From: Streptomyces celluloflavus
Lineage (GTDB): Bacteria; Actinomycetota; Actinomycetes; Streptomycetales; Streptomycetaceae
DNA: 64,000 bases
Direction: 5' to 3'
Assembly (NCBI GenBank): GCA_000720995.1
Contig: JOEL01000015.1
Coordinates: 1 to 64,000, forward strand
In this document: piece by piece, positions 4,024 to 14,336 of the stretch
How positions within the stretch are numbered: position 1 is the first letter of the stretch
Layout of the letters: each line of letters begins with the position of its first letter
Translations under genes and position numbers: made by a program
The notes under the pieces: generated by a model
What the model saw: only the letters and a program-made list of their open reading frames with translations
Database searches by the model: none
Told to the model about the DNA's origin: nothing

Positions 4024-4884
4024 CTATTCGTCTGGGTGGGGAACGGCGCGTCCCAGAAGATGTTCGGCGCGACGGCGAAGGGGGTCGGCCAGTTCGAGGT
4101 TGTCACCGCGGATGGTGCTGTGGAGGAGCTGAGTGATGACGGCGAGTTCGGCATACCGGCCTTCAGGGGCGTTGATCACGTCGCGCAGTTCGTGACGGAC
4201 GGTGGCGGCGACGGAGGGCATGAGCAGGCTGTGACTGTGGAGCACGGCCGCGTCATAGCCGGTCGGGGCGAGGCCCCAACCTTCCCAGTCGAATATGCGG
4301 AGTTCGGGCGCGCAGAGATTCGCCCAGTGAAAGTCGCCATGCGCTGTGGACCACGACGGTGCTGTGGTGTCGATCGGTGTGCCGAGGAACTGTGGCATGG
4401 CGCGCTTGAGGAAGGGCTGATGTACAGAGAGACGTTCGGTGGGTACTTGAGCGATGTCGTCCAGTCCTGCGCGGACGGCTCTCCACCAATTGGAGGGCAC
4501 ATCCGGGATGGCGGTCAGCGTGGCGGTTGTCGAAGCGGGCCGGGCGGTGACCCGCTCGTACAGTTCAGCGCGGTACTCCCATTGCTCGTCGCTCCAGTCG
4601 TGAACGGCGTGCAGTCGAGGGCGCGGTACGGAGTCCGGGATGGCCTGCTCGGCCGTGACGGAGCCGTCCCAGAACGTGACGTTGACCTCGTCGGACGGGG
4701 CGCAGCCGAGGCGCAGCCAGGCCGGGCCGTCGGGGGCGACGACGGGGAGGCTCAGCGTTCGGCCGTGCCACCCCCACGCCTCGTCAGCCTCCCGTTCGGG
4801 CCGGATTTCCAGTTCCGTGCAAGCGAGGCCACGGGCGGTTCGCATTCGCGCGGTGACCTCGGGGTCCTCGGGTTCCGTGAGCAT
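4024..4884 (-). CDS. Aminoglycoside-phosphotransferase-fold kinase, last gene of the lanthipeptide operon
   Basis: 286 residues. The start ATG at 4884 overlaps the stop of the upstream gene (TGATG), so it is translationally coupled to the operon. The C-terminal half carries the APH catalytic loop HGDFHWAN (His182 to Asn189, catalytic Asp184) and the metal-binding aspartate in IFDWEGWG (Asp199). The N-terminal lobe is weakly conserved. Members phosphorylate small molecules (antibiotics, choline, homoserine) and, in class V lanthipeptide and thioviridamide-type pathways, APH-fold proteins are implicated in Ser/Thr modification. Here it could phosphorylate the peptide, give self-protection or modify an unrelated substrate. 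Its place at the end of a coupled operon argues for a role in the pathway, which is inference. Confidence 0.8.
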   Translation of the reverse strand: MLTEPEDPEVTARMRTARGLACTELEIRPEREADEAWGWHGRTLSLPVVAPDGPAWLRLGCAPSDEVNVTFWDGSVTAEQAIPDSVPRPRLHAVHDWSDEQWEYRAELYERVTARPASTTATLTAIPDVPSNWWRAVRAGLDDIAQVPTERLSVHQPFLKRAMPQFLGTPIDTTAPSWSTAHGDFHWANLCAPELRIFDWEGWGLAPTGYDAAVLHSHSLLMPSVAATVRHELRDVINAPEGRYAELAVITQLLHSTIRGDNLELADPLRRRAEHLLGRAVPHPDE

Positions 4885-5921
4885 CAACTGCCCTCCGATG
4901 AGGGGGTATCGGGCAGCATTGTTGACGGGTTCATCACGGTGTCACGTGCCGCCCGCGCGAGGATGCCCTGTGTTCGGCTGTCCAGGCCCATGCGGTTCCA
5001 GGCGAAGATCACGTGATGGGCAAGGATGTCCCGCACGCCTCGCTGGAGAGTGCCGAGGTGTGCCGCACTGTGCAGACCCCGCCCGGCAGTCTCGAAGGCA
5101 GCGGCCCAGGGCGCTATGAAGGCGAGCGGGGCACCCTCGTCGAACAGGGGGCTGGTGGGGCTGGTGTCGAGTTTCATCAGGACTTGTAGCGCCGTAGTCA
5201 TCTCGGTCAGCCGGTTGGCGGGCGTATCGGACGGCAGAGGTCTCAGCTGTTCGACGCGGTGCCAGATGTCGCCCTGCTCGTGCGGCTCCTGACCAGCGCC
5301 GAAGAACAGAGTGCTGGACAGCAGGACGGACAGCTCCCGACGGCCGAGGGCTGTTCCCGGGAGCGCAGTGGCGTCATGGCGACGTACGTAGTCGAGGACA
5401 CCCCTGCTGTCGGCATGGAAGAGATCGTGGGCGACGTCCATGCCGTGCGGACCGCCGAACGCCAGAGACTCGGGCTCGTAGATGGTCTGCCACCATCGGT
5501 CAACCAGCCCTTCGTTCATGAGCCTGCCCAGGATGTTGCTCACGGCGTTCCCGGCGTCGGCGCGGGTGGCCGCGGGGCCGGGCCGGCAGCGGAGACGCCA
5601 GCAGGGGTACTTGCGAAGGAACCACCAACCGGCGAGCGCCCCTGTGGTCTCTGCCTGCTCCAGTTGTGGATCGAGGACGGTGATGGCGGTCTGCTCGGCG
5701 GCACTCCAGTCCGCAAACCGAATGGAGACCGAGTACCAGCCACGGGCGGCCTCAGCTTGTGCTGCGAGGGCGTACGCTCCCGCGGTCTGATAGACCTCGA
5801 CGGCATCAGAGAGGTCGTCGGACTTCATCCCGGCACGGGCGGCAGCCTGGTGGAGTGGGGCGCCGGCCAGAACCTCAAGAACGCTCTTGGTCACCTGGTG
5901 CGGTGAGACGGAATCTTCCAC
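4884..5921 (-). CDS. Stand-alone SpaB_C / thiopeptide-type bacteriocin biosynthesis protein
   Basis: 345 residues, GTG start at 5921, 32 bases after lanC. Residues 1-45 look like the helical N-terminus of these proteins (VTKSVLEVLAGAPLHQAAARAGM). The core matches the LanB elimination-domain family: WYSVSIRF, WWFLRKYPCWRLRCRPG, IYEPESLAFGG and LGRRELSVLLSSTLFFGAG with EQGDIWHRV. In split LanB systems this domain removes glutamate from glutamyl-Ser/Thr to give Dha/Dhb; in thiopeptide pathways relatives make rings. The LanB of this operon already has its own C-terminal elimination domain, so this is an additional copy with an open role: a partner or a second reaction on the same peptide. Its stop overlaps the kinase start. 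Confidence 0.85.
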   Translation of the reverse strand: MEDSVSPHQVTKSVLEVLAGAPLHQAAARAGMKSDDLSDAVEVYQTAGAYALAAQAEAARGWYSVSIRFADWSAAEQTAITVLDPQLEQAETTGALAGWWFLRKYPCWRLRCRPGPAATRADAGNAVSNILGRLMNEGLVDRWWQTIYEPESLAFGGPHGMDVAHDLFHADSRGVLDYVRRHDATALPGTALGRRELSVLLSSTLFFGAGQEPHEQGDIWHRVEQLRPLPSDTPANRLTEMTTALQVLMKLDTSPTSPLFDEGAPLAFIAPWAAAFETAGRGLHSAAHLGTLQRGVRDILAHHVIFAWNRMGLDSRTQGILARAARDTVMNPSTMLPDTPSSEGS

Positions 5922-5953
5922 CCTTCCTCATCCCTTCCTGGCTCGGGAGCGGC

Positions 5954-7186
5954 TCAGTTGATCAGCAGACACGAGTCCCACCCGGAGATCGGCGGTGTGG
6001 GGTGCGCGGCGGTATGCAGGGCGAGGGCAAGTCCCGTGTCCCCTTCGAGCAGTCCGGTGCCCTCGCCAAGACCGGCGCGGCACTGCTGAATGAGACGCTC
6101 GGCCAATCCGGGCACGTGCACGCTGACCTCAGGCGTGCACGCGTCACGGGCAGTTCGCCAGACCGTCTGGTACAGCCCGGCCCAGCCATGGCAGAGGCTG
6201 ATGTCCGAGATCCGGCTGAGCTGGTCCGGGTCGGACAAGCAGCTGACGAGGGTGTGTTCAGCCATCTGCTGACGTGCGGTATCCGTTGTGGCGATGGCTG
6301 CGAGCTGCTGAGCGCGGGCAAGGCCGGGCGTGCCGTAGCACCAACTCGGTCGCCCTGGGCCGAGCTGTCCCGGTCGGCCGGTACGCAGCTGGTCGCGGGT
6401 GATCCACTGCGGCCACCAAGGACCGGAGCCGGCGTGCTGCCGCCAGACGTCCAGCCAGGTGCTGATCACGTGGAGGGCTTCGTCATGCCCGTCTACGGTG
6501 ATCCCTCGGCGCCGAGCCTGGGCGAGGAGCGCGAGCGGCCCGGCGATGCCGTGTGCGACGCCGAAGTTGCCGTGCCCACCGGGGAAGGCATCGGACCGCT
6601 TGACCTGGGGGTCGTGGAAGACCCACCACCCCGGCAGGGTTTCGTCGCCGGCCCGCAGCGGTTGCGTCAGGCGTACCAGGTAGGCCAGTACGCGCTCCAA
6701 AGCATCGTTGCCAGCCGCGTGTTGAAGGAGATGGGCACCGATCCCGGTTAGGCCGTGAAAGAGGTCGTACTCGCCGAAGGCAGGAAGCGCGCCGCGGTCG
6801 ATACGGGCATGTGCGAGGTCGACGCGGCGGTGGGTGAGTGCGGTGACATACGCGTCCACTCCGGTGCGGGCTGGGCCGTATCGCACGATGCCGTCAGCCC
6901 CGGCCGCGTGGAGGACGAAGGCGAGAGCGGGTGCACCGAAGAGCAGGTTGGCGTCGTCCGCAGCACTCACCCCATCCCCGGCCGCGGCCGTCACCCAGCT
7001 GTGCGCGGTCTGCCAGCTGCCCTCCCCTGTGTGGGCGCGCTCGATGTGCAGCAGCGCGACGCCGGCCGCTCCCTTGGACAGGGACTGCGTACGCCATCCC
7101 AGTTCAGCGGGGAGCGGTTCGGGCGTCGTCAGCTGTCCGGCGATCTCCTGCGCGGCGGCGGACGCGGTACGGGTCAGCGCGCTCAC
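5954..7186 (-). CDS. lanC: LanC lanthionine synthetase (cyclase)
   Basis: 410 residues from GTG 7186, whose GTGA overlaps the lanB stop. LanC enzymes are alpha-toroids that use zinc to activate Cys thiols for Michael addition onto Dha/Dhb. The zinc ligands are visible: Cys283 in SWCYGTPG and Cys332-His333 in LCHGWAGLYQ. GGHGNFGVAHGIAGPLALL and the terminal LLEGDTGLALALH repeat the GxxG inner-helix pattern. Length is normal for the family. The neighbouring LanB supplies the dehydrated residues, and the precursor offers three cysteines. Confidence 0.93.
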   Translation of the reverse strand: MSALTRTASAAAQEIAGQLTTPEPLPAELGWRTQSLSKGAAGVALLHIERAHTGEGSWQTAHSWVTAAAGDGVSAADDANLLFGAPALAFVLHAAGADGIVRYGPARTGVDAYVTALTHRRVDLAHARIDRGALPAFGEYDLFHGLTGIGAHLLQHAAGNDALERVLAYLVRLTQPLRAGDETLPGWWVFHDPQVKRSDAFPGGHGNFGVAHGIAGPLALLAQARRRGITVDGHDEALHVISTWLDVWRQHAGSGPWWPQWITRDQLRTGRPGQLGPGRPSWCYGTPGLARAQQLAAIATTDTARQQMAEHTLVSCLSDPDQLSRISDISLCHGWAGLYQTVWRTARDACTPEVSVHVPGLAERLIQQCRAGLGEGTGLLEGDTGLALALHTAAHPTPPISGWDSCLLIN

Positions 7187-10100
7187 CGCGTTCCCTTCCG
7201 TTCGTGGGCGGTCTGTCGCAGGGCCGAGGCGCGGGCCAGTCGGTGGCTGACTCGTTCGCGAGCCGGGTCGACACCGATGGTGCGGACGTGATGCATGTGG
7301 AGCAGGGATCTCAGCACGCCGTAGGGCTCGCGCTGTCGGGCAAGCTGCGTGCGGTAGGTGACAAGGGCAGCCCGGCGTCGTTCCCAGGCGCGTGTCACGT
7401 TCTCGGTGCCAGGCGCGGCGCGCAGCGTCGCCCAGTCGTCGCCGGGGTCTGCCACTCGCATCGCGACATCCCGCAGGGTCCGGTCCAACTTGCCCTGATC
7501 GTGCGGGAGATTGTTGATCAGCCAGTGCAGGCCAACGTCGGGTGTTTCTGCGTAGGAGACGGCAAGGTCAACCAGGCCGGCCGCGGTGACAGCCTCGGGC
7601 GGCAGCCCGGTGCGGACGGCGAGCGTGATCTGGGCGAGGGCAGCGGCGGAGTCGGCGGCGAACAGCTCCTCTGCCGCGTCCATCGCCTCGCCGTGGCCGT
7701 AGCGTCCAGCCTCGGGGTGATAGGTGGCGAGCTGGAGGTGCGCAAGAAGGCCGCAGCGGCGCAGATCGGCGGCCCACTCGCCGATTCGGGTGGCGGCCTG
7801 TCCGTACTGGTCGGGAGTGGGCAGGCGCAGGTAGAGGCTCAGGTACTGCTCGGCGTCAGGGCGGGTGGTGTCGTGATGACGCCGGAACCACCATTGCCGA
7901 AGGTCGGTCCAGCCGTCGAGGAGGCGGGGCAGGTGCTCAGCCAAGACTTCGTCCTGGCGGTCCGGGTGCCCGTGAACCTGCGCGTACAGCCATGGAGAGC
8001 GGCCCGGCAGATGCCCGGCGTCGCGTTCGATGGCTCGGAGGGGCGACGGCGCCATCGGTTTTCGTTCTGCGGCGCGCGGGTGGGCGAGACGCAGCGGCAG
8101 GAGGAATTCGTGGGCGCGGCCCATCCAGGCGAGATCGGCGGAGGTCGGGGCCTCCTGCAGCTCGACCTCGCGGGCCACACCGAGGCGGTTCCTGAGCAGC
8201 GCCCGGTGGAGGGGGTGGCCGAGATCGAGTGGCAGGCGCAGGTCGGACTCGCACAGAACGACGGTTTCCGGGGCGCGCAGCCGACGACGCCATGCCTCAA
8301 GAGCACCGTCCCATTCGGCCGACGGGGCGGCAGGCCGGGGAAGGTCTGCTGCTGTCAGGAGCCAGCGTGCCGGCGAGAGCACGGTCCGGCCGTGGCGCAG
8401 CCGCGGCAGGTACGGCAGACGTATCGCGGCTCCCCAGTCGAACGCCTTGTAGACGGCGCAGCGAGCGGTGGTGATCTCGGCGAGGAAGCGGGCGAGTGGC
8501 GGAGTGAGGGTGCCCGCTTCCAGGGCGTGCACGACCCGCGGTTCGATGTGCCTGCCGGTCGATAGCTGTACCAGGTGGAGCTGGCGAGCGTCTGCAGTGA
8601 CCGCGAGGTCGCGTACTTGGATGAGATCAGGGTGGGGATCGCGGTGCTCAGACAGGGAGATCGTGTGCGGGAGCAGCTGGGACGTCCGGACCACGTTCTC
8701 GCTGCGCCGCCGGCGTGGGAAGAACGACAGCTGGGCGGCGATGGCCTCAGGATCGTCCGTACTCAGGGCGGCGTACGTGTCGGACAGGCTCCTGCGGTCG
8801 GCCTCGGGCAGCAGGTCGGTGAACCGTCCGGCCATGCTGCTGCCGGGGCGTGGGGTTGCTGTGACGAGCAGGCGAAACGCCCCGTCCCCTATGGCCTGCG
8901 GTGAGGCGGCGTGGATCTGAAAGGCGAGTTCGGCGCGCGGTGGCGGGAGCATCTCTGAGAGGTTGCCGACGGCCAGCCTGCGGACCACGGGCTCGGTCAG
9001 CGCGATCTCTTCAGCACCATCGATGACGGCCTGCTGGACAAGGGCGAGCAGGGTTTCGTCGCGTTCGGTGAGCGTGCGCGCGGTGTTCGTCACTGGCGAG
9101 CCCAGGTATCCGGCGGGCAGCCCCAGCCCGGTGTCGCCGACCAGCTCGGGCACGGGGACGACGGCCCCCACTCCGTACCGCTGCCGAAACCGGACGTGGA
9201 AGTCCTTCCATCGGGGATAGCCGAACGGGTAGGGCGTCAGGCGCAGCAGAGCGGAGGCAGCGGTCTCGGCCTCGCGGATTACCGCCTCGGGAAGGGATAC
9301 GTCGCAGTCCAGGGCTGTATCGACAACCAGCTGCTGTGGGGCGATATCGCATATCGCGTTCATCCGCTCAGCCACCGTTGCTCTCATGGCGTGGGCGGCG
9401 GTGGGGGATGCGGCGTCGTTGTGGCACGACAGGTCTTCGTGAATCACCCGCAGGTGCTGCACCAAGCCGGCGAGGTCGGGTAGCTCGTCGGCATCAGCCG
9501 CCTCAAGCTGCGCCCGGAGGTGTCCCAGGGCGTCCGGGACAGTCATCGGCGCTCGGAGGTTGGTGAGCAGGAGGTGCTGGGTGACGAGTTCGGCCAGGAG
9601 GGAACTGATCTGCTTCGGCGGTACGGTCGGGTAGTCAGCGACCAGCAGTGCGACAAGTTCCCCGAAGCGGATGGGCTGGCGAGCAGCCTCCGTCGCGGTA
9701 CGCACCGGTCGCGTGTGACCGACGGATATCTCGATCGGCGCGAGTACGCCAGGACGGTCGTCGGGCGGCTCGCCCGGGGCGGCGAGTCGGTCCCCGCGCA
9801 CGAACGCGACGGGGTTCGTGACCACCAACAGGCGTTCCAGCAGGCGGGGGTGCCGCTCCAGACGGGCGACGACGGCCCCCAACCACTGCGCGTCCGCCCT
9901 GGCGACTGTGCGGTGGCTCTCTCCCCAGCGCACGTGAGCGTCGGTGCCGACTTGAGCCGTGCTGACTCCGGCGAACAGACCGAACGGGGTGGCTCGTCCT
10001 TGCCAGCGCAACTGGTACGAGGCCAAGGACACCACGAGGCGGCGCACTTGGCGGGCATCGACTGCCCGTCCGTCAATCAGCCCGGAAATCTGCTGGGCCA

Positions 10101-10308
10101 GCACAGGACTGGCGGTCTCGACGGCACGCCGGGCCTCATCGTGCTGCCACACCTGCTTCAGCCAGGCCAGTCCCTCGGCCACAGCTACCTCGGGAGAACC
10201 GGTGAGAGGCGGTCCCTCGGTGAGTAGCGCCCTGTCTGGCTGCGTCGTGGCGCGTACCAGGGGTACGCCGGCCAGTCGGTACAGCAGCCGGTCCGCTCCT
10301 GCTGTCAT
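7183..10308 (-). CDS. lanB: LanB lantibiotic dehydratase, full length
   Basis: 1041 residues. ATG 10308 is chosen over upstream in-frame starts because AGAGGAG lies just before it and the N-terminus LLYRLAGVPLVRAT is typical. Residues about 50-650 are the glutamyl-tRNA-dependent glutamylation domain (SLASYQLRWQGRATPFGLFAGVS; YPFGYPRWKDFHVRFRQRYG), which esterifies Ser/Thr of the precursor. The last 270 residues are the SpaB_C elimination domain (SPWLYAQVHG, WFRRHHD, YLSLYLRLP, ATYHPEAGRYGHGEAMDAAE). Both halves are present and intact. It follows the precursor gene after a hairpin and overlaps lanC by four bases. Confidence 0.94.
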   Translation of the reverse strand: MTAGADRLLYRLAGVPLVRATTQPDRALLTEGPPLTGSPEVAVAEGLAWLKQVWQHDEARRAVETASPVLAQQISGLIDGRAVDARQVRRLVVSLASYQLRWQGRATPFGLFAGVSTAQVGTDAHVRWGESHRTVARADAQWLGAVVARLERHPRLLERLLVVTNPVAFVRGDRLAAPGEPPDDRPGVLAPIEISVGHTRPVRTATEAARQPIRFGELVALLVADYPTVPPKQISSLLAELVTQHLLLTNLRAPMTVPDALGHLRAQLEAADADELPDLAGLVQHLRVIHEDLSCHNDAASPTAAHAMRATVAERMNAICDIAPQQLVVDTALDCDVSLPEAVIREAETAASALLRLTPYPFGYPRWKDFHVRFRQRYGVGAVVPVPELVGDTGLGLPAGYLGSPVTNTARTLTERDETLLALVQQAVIDGAEEIALTEPVVRRLAVGNLSEMLPPPRAELAFQIHAASPQAIGDGAFRLLVTATPRPGSSMAGRFTDLLPEADRRSLSDTYAALSTDDPEAIAAQLSFFPRRRRSENVVRTSQLLPHTISLSEHRDPHPDLIQVRDLAVTADARQLHLVQLSTGRHIEPRVVHALEAGTLTPPLARFLAEITTARCAVYKAFDWGAAIRLPYLPRLRHGRTVLSPARWLLTAADLPRPAAPSAEWDGALEAWRRRLRAPETVVLCESDLRLPLDLGHPLHRALLRNRLGVAREVELQEAPTSADLAWMGRAHEFLLPLRLAHPRAAERKPMAPSPLRAIERDAGHLPGRSPWLYAQVHGHPDRQDEVLAEHLPRLLDGWTDLRQWWFRRHHDTTRPDAEQYLSLYLRLPTPDQYGQAATRIGEWAADLRRCGLLAHLQLATYHPEAGRYGHGEAMDAAEELFAADSAAALAQITLAVRTGLPPEAVTAAGLVDLAVSYAETPDVGLHWLINNLPHDQGKLDRTLRDVAMRVADPGDDWATLRAAPGTENVTRAWERRRAALVTYRTQLARQREPYGVLRSLLHMHHVRTIGVDPARERVSHRLARASALRQTAHERKGTR

Positions 10309-10352
10309 CAGCTCCTCTTCCCTTTCGACAGCGTGCGGGGGTAGATGTCGCC

Positions 10353-10391
10353 GGTGGCGCCGGCAGGGCTGTCCGCCTGGCCGGCGCCACC
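10353..10391 (-). terminator. Intercistronic hairpin between precursor and lanB (attenuator)
   Basis: A perfect 12-bp stem (GGTGGCGCCGGC with its complement, 15-base loop) lies in the 97-base gap between the precursor stop and the lanB start. Such hairpins after a RiPP precursor commonly stop most transcripts or protect the 3' end, so that precursor mRNA exceeds enzyme mRNA. A ribosome site for lanB lies downstream of it. Confidence 0.7.
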
Positions 10392-10405
10392 AACAGGGAT
10401 CAGCG

Positions 10406-10573
10406 TCAGGCCGGGTCGCCCACGAACGAGGTGCAGGCCGTGCCGGAGCAGCTGGAGCCGCAGTTGTCGCTGGTGTCGCGCAACAGGTCACGGACCGGCA
10501 CGCCGGACTCGATGACGCGGACGTCGAGCGTGAATTCCACATCGACCTGGGTGGCCGTGGCTTCGATATTCAT
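10406..10573 (-). CDS. lanA: FxLD family lanthipeptide precursor peptide
   Basis: A 55-residue peptide from ATG 10573, with AGAAGGAG upstream and an ATGA overlap with the methyltransferase stop. The leader has the defining box Phe14-Thr-Leu-Asp17 inside VEFTLDVRVIESG, the LanB recognition element of class I precursors. The C-terminal core from about residue 33 has three cysteines (38, 42, 47) and eight Ser/Thr (34, 35, 40, 41, 43, 45, 48, 49), enough for three thioether rings, and ends in VGDPA. Asp36-Asn37 directly before Cys38 is the likely site for the PIMT-like methyltransferase. The leader cleavage site and ring pattern cannot be read from the sequence; no GG or similar site is present. 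Confidence 0.92.
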   Translation of the reverse strand: MNIEATATQVDVEFTLDVRVIESGVPVRDLLRDTSDNCGSSCSGTACTSFVGDPA

Positions 10574-11853
10574 GCTGTTCGCTCCTTCTGGATGAGTTGG
10601 TGCGGGTTGCCCTGGCTCGCCGGAGACAGGCCCTCCGACGGCCAGGAGATGAGGACGCGGACATGCCGCTTGTTGATGACTCGCCCCTCAGGGAGCTGTT
10701 CATCGGGGGTATCGGCCGGGTAAGCCGTGATGCTCGGGCCAGGCCCGCCGCGGTGGTCACGGCTCCAGACACGGATCTGCTCGGCCATGGCGTCGGCGAG
10801 CGCGGCGGCATCCGGCCCGAAGGCGTGCGCTCCGAACTCGAACACCGGATCCGGTTCCTCGCCCAGTTTCCGCAAGGCGAGATAGGCGAAAGCTCCTCCC
10901 TCGACCACGGCCGGGCAAGCCATCTTGTTCTGGGGGGAGACCAGGCCCGTGTCCAGCTTCGGGTCGACTGCGAGGAGACAGAAGCCGTCCAGTGCCGTGG
11001 CCAGCCACATCTGGAGCGTGTCGAACTGCTCCCCACGGGGGATCCTCACCCCCGACCACACCTCGACTCGCTCGGTGTCGAGCGCACCGTTCAGCAAGTC
11101 CGGGTCGGCCGGCCACTCGTCATCGAACCGCAGACCGATCTCCTTGCCGCGCAGAAGCAGCAGTCGTTCCCGGTGCGCTCCCGCGCCCTGCATCGTGACG
11201 AAGCCGCAGATCTTCGCCGACTGGCTGACCAGGCGATCTCCGGCTCGGACGAAGGTGATCGATCGGGTCAGGCCCCGCATCCGAAGGGGAACTGTGATGG
11301 TTCCTCCTTCAGCGAGCTGGTCCACCCAGGCCGGCGGGATGTCCCAGCTGCCGACGGTGACGACCGTCCTGTCGTACGGGGCATGCTCGGCGCATCCCTC
11401 CTCGCCATCCGTCAGTACGACATTCACGCGGGCGTATCCGGCCCCCTTCAGACAGGCGCGGGCGCGGTCGGTGACATCTGCGTCGATGTCGATGGTCGTG
11501 ATCTCACCGCCCGTGCCGACCAGCTCAGCCATCAGCGCGGCGTTGTAGCCACCGGAACCGATCTCCAGGCCCCGGTGACCGGGACGAAGCCCCGCTTGCT
11601 CCAGCATGGTGGCCTGGATTTCCGGCGCGGACACCGAGCTGATAGTGATCCCGTTCGCGTCGCGCTTCGTGGCCACAACGGCATGGGCGTACGCCTTCTC
11701 CAGGGGCGCTCCGGGGGCGAACAGATGCCGGGGCACCTTACGGAATGCCTCTTCGACCTCCTTCGACTCGATCGTGTGCTGGGCCACAAGCTCATTCACG
11801 AGCCTGTCTCGCAGCTCAGCTGCGGAGGCCGAGTCGGCGGTCACTTCGGTCAC
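10570..11853 (-). CDS. PIMT-like O-methyltransferase of the FxLD lanthipeptide system
   Basis: 427 residues from GTG 11853, with AAGAAGG nine bases upstream; an ATG at 11913 would add 20 atypical residues. The N-terminal half is a protein-L-isoaspartate methyltransferase fold (VPRHLFAPG, KRDANGITISSVSAPEIQATMLEQAGL, LEIGSGGYNAALMAELVG). The C-terminal half (about 230-427) is an extension seen in lanthipeptide-associated members. Such enzymes methylate an Asp side chain of the cyclised peptide; the ester collapses to an aspartimide, giving isoaspartate (known for OlvS-type enzymes). Its stop overlaps the precursor start, so enzyme and substrate are translated together. It appears to be the first gene of the operon. 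Confidence 0.9.
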   Translation of the reverse strand: MTEVTADSASAAELRDRLVNELVAQHTIESKEVEEAFRKVPRHLFAPGAPLEKAYAHAVVATKRDANGITISSVSAPEIQATMLEQAGLRPGHRGLEIGSGGYNAALMAELVGTGGEITTIDIDADVTDRARACLKGAGYARVNVVLTDGEEGCAEHAPYDRTVVTVGSWDIPPAWVDQLAEGGTITVPLRMRGLTRSITFVRAGDRLVSQSAKICGFVTMQGAGAHRERLLLLRGKEIGLRFDDEWPADPDLLNGALDTERVEVWSGVRIPRGEQFDTLQMWLATALDGFCLLAVDPKLDTGLVSPQNKMACPAVVEGGAFAYLALRKLGEEPDPVFEFGAHAFGPDAAALADAMAEQIRVWSRDHRGGPGPSITAYPADTPDEQLPEGRVINKRHVRVLISWPSEGLSPASQGNPHQLIQKERTA

Positions 11854-12282: not shown

Positions 12283-12603
12283 TCATCCGTAAGGTCTGGT
12301 CGTTTTGCTCCCAGGCGTTCCAGCTCGTGACGGAAGCCGGACGCGGATTCCCGCTCGACCATCCTGCAATGGCTGAGGAGCCAGCCGTTCGGCGTCTTTG
12401 GCGGTCGGGAGTGCAGACTCCAGGCTGAGGATCAGGTCCAGGTCGTCGTCAAGGTCCTCGTCGTTGACGAAGGAGTCGTGCAGCCTGTCCAGCAGGCTCA
12501 CCGTCGTTCCGTCGTCTACGGGCCGTGCGGGCTCGGCGACCACCTCGCGCCGGGTGTCGTCGTGGCGCATAGGGAATGGGGGGTAGATCAGTGTGGCATT
12601 CAT
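12283..12603 (-). CDS. Small acidic hypothetical protein coupled to RsbW-like ATPase
   Basis: 106 residues from ATG 12603, whose ATGA overlaps the stop of the ATPase upstream. Residues 30-65 are strongly acidic and helical (LLDRLHDSFVNDEDLDDDLDLILSLE). The tail after about residue 75 is Arg/Gly-rich, and a better-looking continuation exists in another frame, so the C-terminus may be altered by a frameshift. I do not recognise a family. The coupling suggests it works with or regulates the ATPase. Confidence 0.55.
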   Translation of the reverse strand: MNATLIYPPFPMRHDDTRREVVAEPARPVDDGTTVSLLDRLHDSFVNDEDLDDDLDLILSLESALPTAKDAERLAPQPLQDGRAGIRVRLPSRAGTPGSKTTRPYG

Positions 12604-13013
12604 GCCACGGTCTCCCTGGCAGTGCAGAACTCGACCCACACGTCCTTACCTCCGGGGTTCGGGCTGGCGCCCCAGGCGTCGACTGTCTTGCTGATCAGGA
12701 ACAATCCGCGCCCGCTCTCGGCGGACCAGTCCGGTTCGCGGATCACGGGGAGGTCCCGGCATCTGTCGCTGACGACGATGCGCACGCCCGTGGGCGAGGA
12801 CTGGAGGAGAAGGGTGCAGGCAGCGGATCCCGCGTGTTTGTGCACGTTGGAGAGCAGTTCTGTGACGCACATACTGGCGGGGCGGACCAATTCGCCATGG
12901 CCCCAATGCCGCAGGTGCGCGCCGACGATCCGGCGGATGCACCCCAGGTCCTTCGGGCGAACGGTCAGTTCCTGTCGGTACTGCCGCGTGTCTATTGCTG
13001 TCATGACGGCCAT
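12600..13013 (-). CDS. RsbW-like regulatory ATPase (HATPase_c_2)
   Basis: 137 residues from ATG 13013; ATG 13004 and a longer start at 13094 are alternatives and none has a strong ribosome site. The GHKL N-box is CVTELLSNVHKHAG and the G1 box is VVSDRCRDLP, followed by SGRGLFLISKTVDAWG and KDVWVEF. This short stand-alone form is expanded in Streptomyces and includes anti-sigma kinases and partners of DUF397/XRE sets. It is divergent from the XRE-DUF397 pair about 450 bases away. Its target is unknown. Confidence 0.8.
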   Translation of the reverse strand: MAVMTAIDTRQYRQELTVRPKDLGCIRRIVGAHLRHWGHGELVRPASMCVTELLSNVHKHAGSAACTLLLQSSPTGVRIVVSDRCRDLPVIREPDWSAESGRGLFLISKTVDAWGASPNPGGKDVWVEFCTARETVA

Positions 13014-13466: not shown

Positions 13467-14336
13467 GTGGCAGCGAAGCGCGGAGCGACGTTCCGACGCA
13501 GAGAGCTCGGCAAGGAGCTGAGGAAGCTCCGGGAGAAGAAGGACCTCACGCTTCAGGAAGTGGCCAAGGAGCTGGGGTTCTCGCACACCAAACTGGCGCG
13601 TGTCGAAATTGGAGAGAACGACCTACCTCGCGTGGGCGATCTCGAAGCCCTCCTGGACCTCTACGACGGCAATCTGGTGAGAGAGGATCGGGAGACGCTG
13701 CTCCAGCTCCATCGGGAGTCGTTGAGCAAGGAGCCGTGGACGCCCTACAAGGCGTTCATGCCGTCAAAGATGCCGACGTACCGGGGTTTGGAGCAGGACG
13801 CGACGGTGATGCGCGCCTTCCAGCCCAACTTCGTGTTCGGTCTTCTGCAGACGGAGGGATACGCGCATGCCTTGTTCATGGTCGCGAAGCCTGTGGACGA
13901 GACGACCACCGAGTACGTCGAACAGAACGTCCGACTTCGACTGGAGCGAAAGGACCTGATCACCAGGTCCGATAACCCGCTCGAACTTCGCGTCATCATG
14001 GACGAGACCGCCGTGCGACGGATGGTAGGCGGGCCTGACGTCATGCGGGAGCAGTACGACGAGATCGTGGAGCTCAGCCGCCTGGAGAACGTGACCATCC
14101 AGATCCTCACCCACGACATCGTCACCTACCGTTCCGAGAGCAACTTCGCGATTCTCGACTTCGCCGATGCTCTCGCCCCCGTCGTCCAGGTGGACATGCC
14201 GAACACCATCAGCGTCACGGACGAACGGCGCGAGGTCCAGAGGAATGTTCGCCGATTCGACGCCATGCGCGACGGCGCCCTGCCTCCGGCCCGCACGGCC
14301 GGGTTCCTGCAACAACTAGCACGAGAGCGGAAGTAG
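13467..14336 (+). CDS. XRE family regulator with DUF5753 domain
   Basis: 289 residues from GTG 13467 with GAAAGGAC upstream. The N-terminal helix-turn-helix is LGKELRKLREKKDLTLQEVAKELGFSHTKLARVEIGE. DUF5753 follows from about residue 90 (YRGLEQDATVMRAFQPNFVFGLLQTEGYA ... LRVIMDETAVRRMVGG ... VTIQILTHD). This is the standard Streptomyces helix-turn-helix protein that partners a downstream DUF397 protein, present here 29 bases later. Base composition is somewhat lower in GC than the core genes nearby. Its target is unknown; these pairs influence development or antibiotic production in studied strains. Confidence 0.88.
   Translation: MAAKRGATFRRRELGKELRKLREKKDLTLQEVAKELGFSHTKLARVEIGENDLPRVGDLEALLDLYDGNLVREDRETLLQLHRESLSKEPWTPYKAFMPSKMPTYRGLEQDATVMRAFQPNFVFGLLQTEGYAHALFMVAKPVDETTTEYVEQNVRLRLERKDLITRSDNPLELRVIMDETAVRRMVGGPDVMREQYDEIVELSRLENVTIQILTHDIVTYRSESNFAILDFADALAPVVQVDMPNTISVTDERREVQRNVRRFDAMRDGALPPARTAGFLQQLARERK

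What the first reader, a model, noticed from the sequence alone, without database searches (positions are those of the whole stretch)
4024..11853. FxLD class I lanthipeptide operon with two extra enzymes
A compact six-gene operon encodes PIMT-like methyltransferase, precursor, LanB, LanC, a second SpaB_C-type protein and an APH-fold kinase. The first four define the FxLD family. The last two are coupled to it by a 32-base gap and a one-base overlap. The mature product should be a three-ring peptide carrying isoaspartate or aspartimide, possibly with a further modification.
Basis: partly seen in the sequence, partly recalled or inferred. Interest (0 to 1): 0.8.

Follow-up and report, generated by a model that had tools for sequence, protein, structure and literature searches.

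The report
Lanthipeptide operon with recurrent peptide kinase
A streptomycete-type bacterium carries a six-gene operon for a small ring-shaped modified peptide, and its last gene is a kinase that recurs in the same place in relatives and in a second, unrelated peptide system, which suggests an undescribed phosphorylation of such peptides.

Summary
The operon is real: on the minus strand, FxLD methyltransferase, FxLD precursor, full LanB, LanC, a separate SpaB_C protein and an APH-fold kinase, tightly packed. The first five are the usual FxLD set. SpaB_C is not an extra: a homologue lies in 99 of 115 surveyed FxLD loci, fused or abutting to the methyltransferase in 56, and this was already published. 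It lacks NisB Arg826 and His961, so it is probably not a glutamate lyase. The kinase is the new part. It is uncommon (6 of 115 surveyed loci have it in this position), yet directly follows SpaB_C in 23 of 24 distinct kinase-bearing FxLD loci found, from six actinobacterial families. Many relatives close another mini-cluster: small peptide, JmjC/cupin protein, aldo/keto reductase, kinase. In 19 of 19 unique kinase-linked FxLD precursors the residue before the methyltransferase's presumed Asp is Ser or Thr, against 12 of 93 without kinase, where Asp is commonest; the cupin peptides also carry Ser-Asp. I propose that the kinase phosphorylates that hydroxyl. The correlation rests on only about four independent evolutionary contrasts, and no activity has been shown. 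New variant of a known kind.

The parts
10570..11853 (-). FxLD-system PIMT-like O-methyltransferase (LanSA type), GTG start
   Evidence: TIGR04364 602 bits; PF01135
10406..10573 (-). FxLD precursor, 55 aa; leader FTLDV, core ...RDTSDNCGSSCSGTACTSFVGDPA; presumed methyltransferase target is the Asp of TSDN, proposed kinase site the Ser before it
   Evidence: TIGR04363 55.7 bits
7183..10308 (-). Full-length LanB dehydratase; positions of NisB Arg784/Arg786 are Ser/Tyr, Arg826 and His961 kept
   Evidence: PF04738, PF14028
5954..7186 (-). LanC cyclase
   Evidence: PF05147 114 bits
4884..5921 (-). Standalone SpaB_C (LanB elimination-domain-like) protein; Arg784/Arg786/Glu823 kept, Arg826 to Ala, His961 to Ile
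   Evidence: TIGR03891 190 bits
4024..4884 (-). APH-fold kinase-like protein, 286 aa, with HGDFHWAN and DWE motifs
   Evidence: PF01636 20.0 bits; alignments; model pLDDT 96; PDB comparison

Best explanation
This is an FxLD class I lanthipeptide operon of the aspartimide/isoaspartate kind with an added peptide kinase. LanB and LanC make thioether rings; the PIMT-like enzyme then methylates the Asp of the TSDN motif, giving aspartimide or isoaspartate; the SpaB_C protein assists (most likely with the methyltransferase, to which its homologues are often fused) rather than eliminating glutamate. The APH-fold kinase phosphorylates the Ser directly before that Asp, so that phosphoserine stands where many other FxLD peptides carry a genetically encoded Asp. 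Shown: genes, order, recurrence, kinase motifs and predicted fold, co-variation of the kinase with a hydroxyl residue at that position. Inferred: every chemical step, that the kinase acts on the peptide, and the site.
Against: The p-values ignore kinship: on the LanB tree (119 rows) only four well-supported independent contrasts exist, most often three in favour, none against, one tied (median p 0.25); scored for Ser alone, one contrast usually goes the other way. Twelve unique precursors have Ser at the position without a kinase in the locus. Antibiotic and metabolite kinases of the APH fold score as high as or higher than LxmK. The usual beta-3 Lys position reads Arg (invariant Arg58; position assigned by eye). 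No product was seen in the papers opened.
Confidence: 0.45

Rival explanations
1. The kinase does not modify the precursor: it phosphorylates a small molecule or host target, for self-protection or regulation, and travels with the cluster.
For: APH folds are best known from antibiotic phosphotransferases, which head the structural matches. The kinase is dispensable: not coupled in 109 of 115 surveyed loci. Eleven of 80 named kinase loci were in neither peptide system and four more had only a reductase match.
Against: Sixty-five of 80 named loci are in one of two small-peptide systems (FxLD 20, cupin 45), though the search patterns came from members of both, which biases this. Co-variation with one core residue is unexpected for a target outside the peptide.
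Confidence: 0.27
2. Kinase and SpaB_C form a second dehydratase: the kinase phosphorylates Ser/Thr and SpaB_C eliminates phosphate, a class V-like pair within a class I cluster.
For: The two genes are translationally coupled and the kinase resembles LxmK in fold.
Against: SpaB_C occurs widely without the kinase (99 of 115 against 6 coupled) and the kinase without SpaB_C in the cupin system. Of 81 SpaB_C sequences 2 keep the NisB Arg826 equivalent and none His961. No HopA1/LanY-type lyase domain in the six proteins.
Confidence: 0.1
3. The APH-fold protein is not a kinase on this pathway but a cyclase or scaffold, as an APH-family protein of class V clusters may be.
For: Two APH-family proteins occur in the cacaoidin cluster (CaoK and CaoX), and HopA1 and APH proteins were believed to serve dehydration and cyclisation (PMC9486802 passages), so the fold alone does not prove phosphotransfer.
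Against: HGD, Asn and DWE motifs conserved; LanC is already present in the operon.
Confidence: 0.08
4. The SpaB_C protein makes a further bond, as the related pyridine-forming enzymes of thiopeptides do.
For: Suggested as a possibility by Walker et al. 2020 (section 8); loss of eliminase residues while others stay conserved implies a changed function.
Against: Fusion or abutment to the methyltransferase in 56 of 115 surveyed loci points to a role with that enzyme. No structure could be predicted, so this was not tested.
Confidence: 0.1

Closest known systems
FxLD-family class I lanthipeptides with PIMT homologues (lanthimiditides; OlvA/OlvSA)
   Same: Precursor, methyltransferase, LanB and LanC families; conserved Asp in a T-x-D-x-C motif
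   Different: Motif is TSDNC; the commonest published one is TxDGC, though Asn after the Asp has been noted (PMC13001092, passages). An APH-fold kinase closes the operon
Class I clusters with full LanB plus standalone elimination-domain protein (Walker et al. 2020)
   Same: Exactly this SpaB_C arrangement, often fused to PIMT
   Different: No kinase is mentioned in the section read
Class V lanthipeptide kinases LanK (CaoK, LxmK)
   Same: APH fold, encoded with a lanthipeptide precursor
   Different: No LanY lyase domain here, and LanB/LanC are present for dehydration and cyclisation
Phosphorylated lasso and linear peptides (PadeK, PsmK, LppK)
   Same: A tailoring kinase phosphorylating a precursor Ser
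   Different: Those kinases are HPr-kinase-like, not APH-like

Membership tests
FxLD class I lanthipeptide | FxLD precursor above TIGR04363 cut-off | tested here: met
   55.7 against 30 bits
FxLD class I lanthipeptide | FxLD methyltransferase above TIGR04364 cut-off | tested here: met
   602 against 320 bits
FxLD class I lanthipeptide | LanB with both domains, and LanC | tested here: met
   PF04738, PF14028, PF05147 over cut-off
Lanthimiditide (aspartimide/isoAsp lanthipeptide) | Asp of the core converted to aspartimide or isoAsp | not testable with these tools
   PIMT homologue and conserved Asp present; chemistry unmeasured
LanB-type glutamate eliminase (for the standalone SpaB_C) | Counterparts of NisB Arg784, Arg786, Glu823, Arg826, His961 (catalytic role recalled; numbering from the 4wd9 alignment) | tested here: not met
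   Arg826 is Ala and His961 is Ile in the window protein; of 81 sequences 66 have Ala and 2 Arg at 826, none has His at 961
Class V LanK/LanY dehydratase | APH-like kinase paired with a HopA1-like LanY lyase | tested here: not met
   No such domain among Pfam matches of the six operon proteins
APH-fold phosphotransferase | APH fold with HxD, Asn and Asp-x-x catalytic motifs | tested here: met
APH-fold phosphotransferase | Pfam PF01636 gathering score | tested here: not met
   20.0 against 23.2 for the window protein; of three relatives two pass

The most novel reading that the evidence does not exclude
An undescribed family of APH-fold RiPP kinases phosphorylates the Ser of a Ser-Asp motif in two otherwise unrelated peptide families: FxLD lanthipeptides, where phosphoserine replaces an encoded Asp next to the aspartimide site, and a JmjC/aldo-keto-reductase peptide family, so that modular phosphorylation is shared between RiPP classes.
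Probability: 0.3. Interest if true: 0.78.

Novelty: new variant of a known kind. Interest (0 to 1): 0.6.

Why it matters
In the listings and passages seen no lanthipeptide that keeps a phosphate as its end product came up. A kinase tied to one core residue beside the aspartimide site would give a direct, cheap test of what that position does, and the same kinase family marks a second peptide system that can be mined.

Tried and rejected
Second-dehydratase idea for kinase plus SpaB_C: disfavoured by independent occurrence and missing eliminase residues. Complementation idea (window-clade LanB lost Arg784 and Arg786 in 15 of 16 while its SpaB_C keeps both in 16 of 16, and mostly the reverse for Arg826/His961): left open, because SpaB_C shows much the same pattern where LanB is intact, and the LanB loss does not follow the kinase. 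The kinase profile found only insignificant matches among PDB sequences (best E 0.56), SpaB_C likewise. Tree of the kinase (50 rows): FxLD kinases need 2 changes on the best tree and 1 in 24% of bootstrap trees, compatible with one recruitment.

Rows dropped or changed before counting: L250 false frame removed, its true frame added by hand later; L086 reset to kinase-negative; L119 and L127 are second copies of L071 and L072; L241 unreadable; L261, L262, L267, L269, L271 gave no precursor hit. Identical last 30 residues were counted once. One duplicate FxLD locus (G124:C1:4698079) was not fetched. Neighbourhood counts rest on tblastn with one reference per family (two or three for small peptides). 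An overlap filter hid SpaB_C in three loci; one search recounts without it (99 instead of 96 of 115), and repeats the residue test with the same result.

Literature: ten searches of the held open-licence library. In the listings and passages opened I saw no kinase in FxLD clusters and no cupin/reductase/kinase peptide system; most listed papers were not opened and subscription papers are not held, so absence is weak evidence. PMC12710340 does note that bacterial homologues of an RRE-fused JmjC protein (PF08007) lie in RiPP-like contexts. Papers seen: PMC7268733 (passages and section 8), PMC13001092, PMC10787088, PMC12710340, PMC9303977, PMC9486802, PMC13381572, PMC9266682, PMC12328550, PMC7296275 (passages only). 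The role of the NisB residues in elimination is recalled; the one review searched for it did not name them.

Full report
The thing itself. On the minus strand at 11853-4024 lie six packed genes: FxLD methyltransferase, 55-residue FxLD precursor, full-length LanB, LanC, a separate SpaB_C protein and an APH-fold kinase-like protein. Overlaps or short gaps (4, 97, 4, 32 and 1 bases) fit one transcript; no terminator-like site was found, though that scan proves little here. The window lies in an 8.68-Mb genome of the family Streptomycetaceae (inferred: contigs of surveyed same-family genomes equal named Streptomyces, Streptacidiphilus and Kitasatospora contigs in length).

How common. In 200 genomes of the family, 83 have an FxLD precursor. 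I fetched 115 FxLD loci from that survey, the window included. A SpaB_C homologue occurs in 99 of 115: fused or abutting to the methyltransferase in 56 (gap criterion on tblastn matches), alone in 43; in 16 none was matched, some of these at contig ends or with broken clusters. So SpaB_C is ordinary FxLD equipment, and Walker et al. 2020 had reported it. The kinase is not ordinary: 6 of 115 have it coupled to SpaB_C, L074 has one about 4 kb beyond its cluster, L086 a weak partial match.

The kinase recurs in place. A scan of one genome per species kept 80 of 106 kinase-encoding loci. Twenty are FxLD, 37 have the small peptide and/or cupin with a reductase, 8 cupin or peptide without reductase, 4 reductase only, 11 other; the patterns were drawn from FxLD and cupin members, which favours these classes. 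Adding the window, L068, L069 and L070, there are 24 distinct FxLD loci with kinase; in 23 it directly follows SpaB_C, and in L090 (a short contig) it precedes the methyltransferase. L093 lacks matches upstream of LanC and L124 is cut by its contig. They come from Streptomycetaceae, Nocardiopsidaceae, Streptosporangiaceae, Frankiaceae, Pseudonocardiaceae and Promicromonosporaceae. A protein of about 369 aa without a significant Pfam match is found in the stretch of 64 of 93 kinase-negative unique rows and of 0 of 19 kinase-positive ones.

What it may act on. In 112 unique precursors the residue before the methyltransferase's presumed Asp is Ser (18) or Thr (1) in 19 of 19 kinase-linked ones, and Ser in 12 of 93 others, where Asp leads with 54. 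Kinship weakens this: 119 LanB rows give four supported independent contrasts, most often three for, none against, one tied; the kinase label needs six changes on that tree. The cupin-system peptides carry (x)SDGG(S/G)TGxxDxND at or near the end. A hydroxyl before Asp is thus the shared feature of both kinase-bearing systems. Since phosphoserine resembles Asp, the kinase may supply the charge that other FxLD peptides encode. Alternatively it could shield this Ser from LanB.

SpaB_C and LanB. Numbered on NisB chain 4wd9, 81 SpaB_C sequences keep Arg784 in 57, Arg786 in 80 and Glu823 in 73, but Arg826 in 2 (Ala in 66) and His961 in none. It is therefore unlikely to be a normal eliminase. Unexpectedly, LanB of the window's clade has lost Arg784 and Arg786 in 15 of 16, while 87 of 105 other LanBs keep both (8 gapped there). 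Whether the two proteins share one active site is open.

Precedents. PIMT homologues convert Asp to aspartimide or isoAsp in class I lanthipeptides such as OlvA (PMC13001092, passages), mostly with core motif TxDGC (PMC10787088, passages). CaoK, an APH-like enzyme, phosphorylates Ser/Thr before elimination by CaoY. PadeK and LppK leave phosphate on their peptides.

Verdict. The gene finding is solid; the kinase association is real and was not described in what I could search; the proposed phosphorylation site is a testable inference.

Noticed in passing
L073, L075-L078, L082, L097, L099-L103, L105, L107-L112 and others; own genome L273 (G000:C23) and L274 (G000:C21): Mini-cluster for which no name was found: peptide of about 43-54 aa with (x)SDGG(S/G)TGxxDxND, JmjC_2/cupin protein of about 395 aa, aldo/keto reductase, APH-fold kinase. 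Cupin or peptide in 45 of 80 named kinase loci (37 with the reductase, 8 without); no NCBIfam model matched the four representative proteins. PMC12710340 notes JmjC proteins in RiPP-like contexts.
   Followed up: partly
L154:7256-9744, L156:7217-9729, L167:7336-9729: A third kinase context: radical SAM/SPASM protein, AAA ATPase, kinase, in Thermoactinomycetaceae and Actinosynnema (Pfam scan of L154 and L167 only). No precursor identified.
   Followed up: partly
window 7183-10308 and L068, L069, L070, L083, L085, L088, L089, L092, L096, L113, L121, L170, L174, L200: LanB clade that has lost the counterparts of NisB Arg784 and Arg786 while mostly keeping Arg826 (15 of 16) and His961 (12 of 16, the clade including L196); unexplained.
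   Followed up: partly
for example L074:11135-12244, L085:11755-12840: Protein of about 369 aa (only insignificant TPR matches) in the stretch of 64 of 93 kinase-negative unique FxLD rows and 0 of 19 kinase-positive ones.
   Followed up: partly
L272 (G000:C13:263000-280000): The same genome holds another LanB, LanC and SpaB_C cluster, distant in sequence and without a matched FxLD precursor.
   Followed up: no
window 12600-13013 and 13467-14336: HATPase_c_2 protein and HTH_31/DUF5753 regulator upstream of the operon; possible regulators.
   Followed up: no
L236, L253, L255, L258, L261-L263, L266, L267, L269: FxLD-type loci with LanB, LanC and methyltransferase but no SpaB_C match.
   Followed up: no
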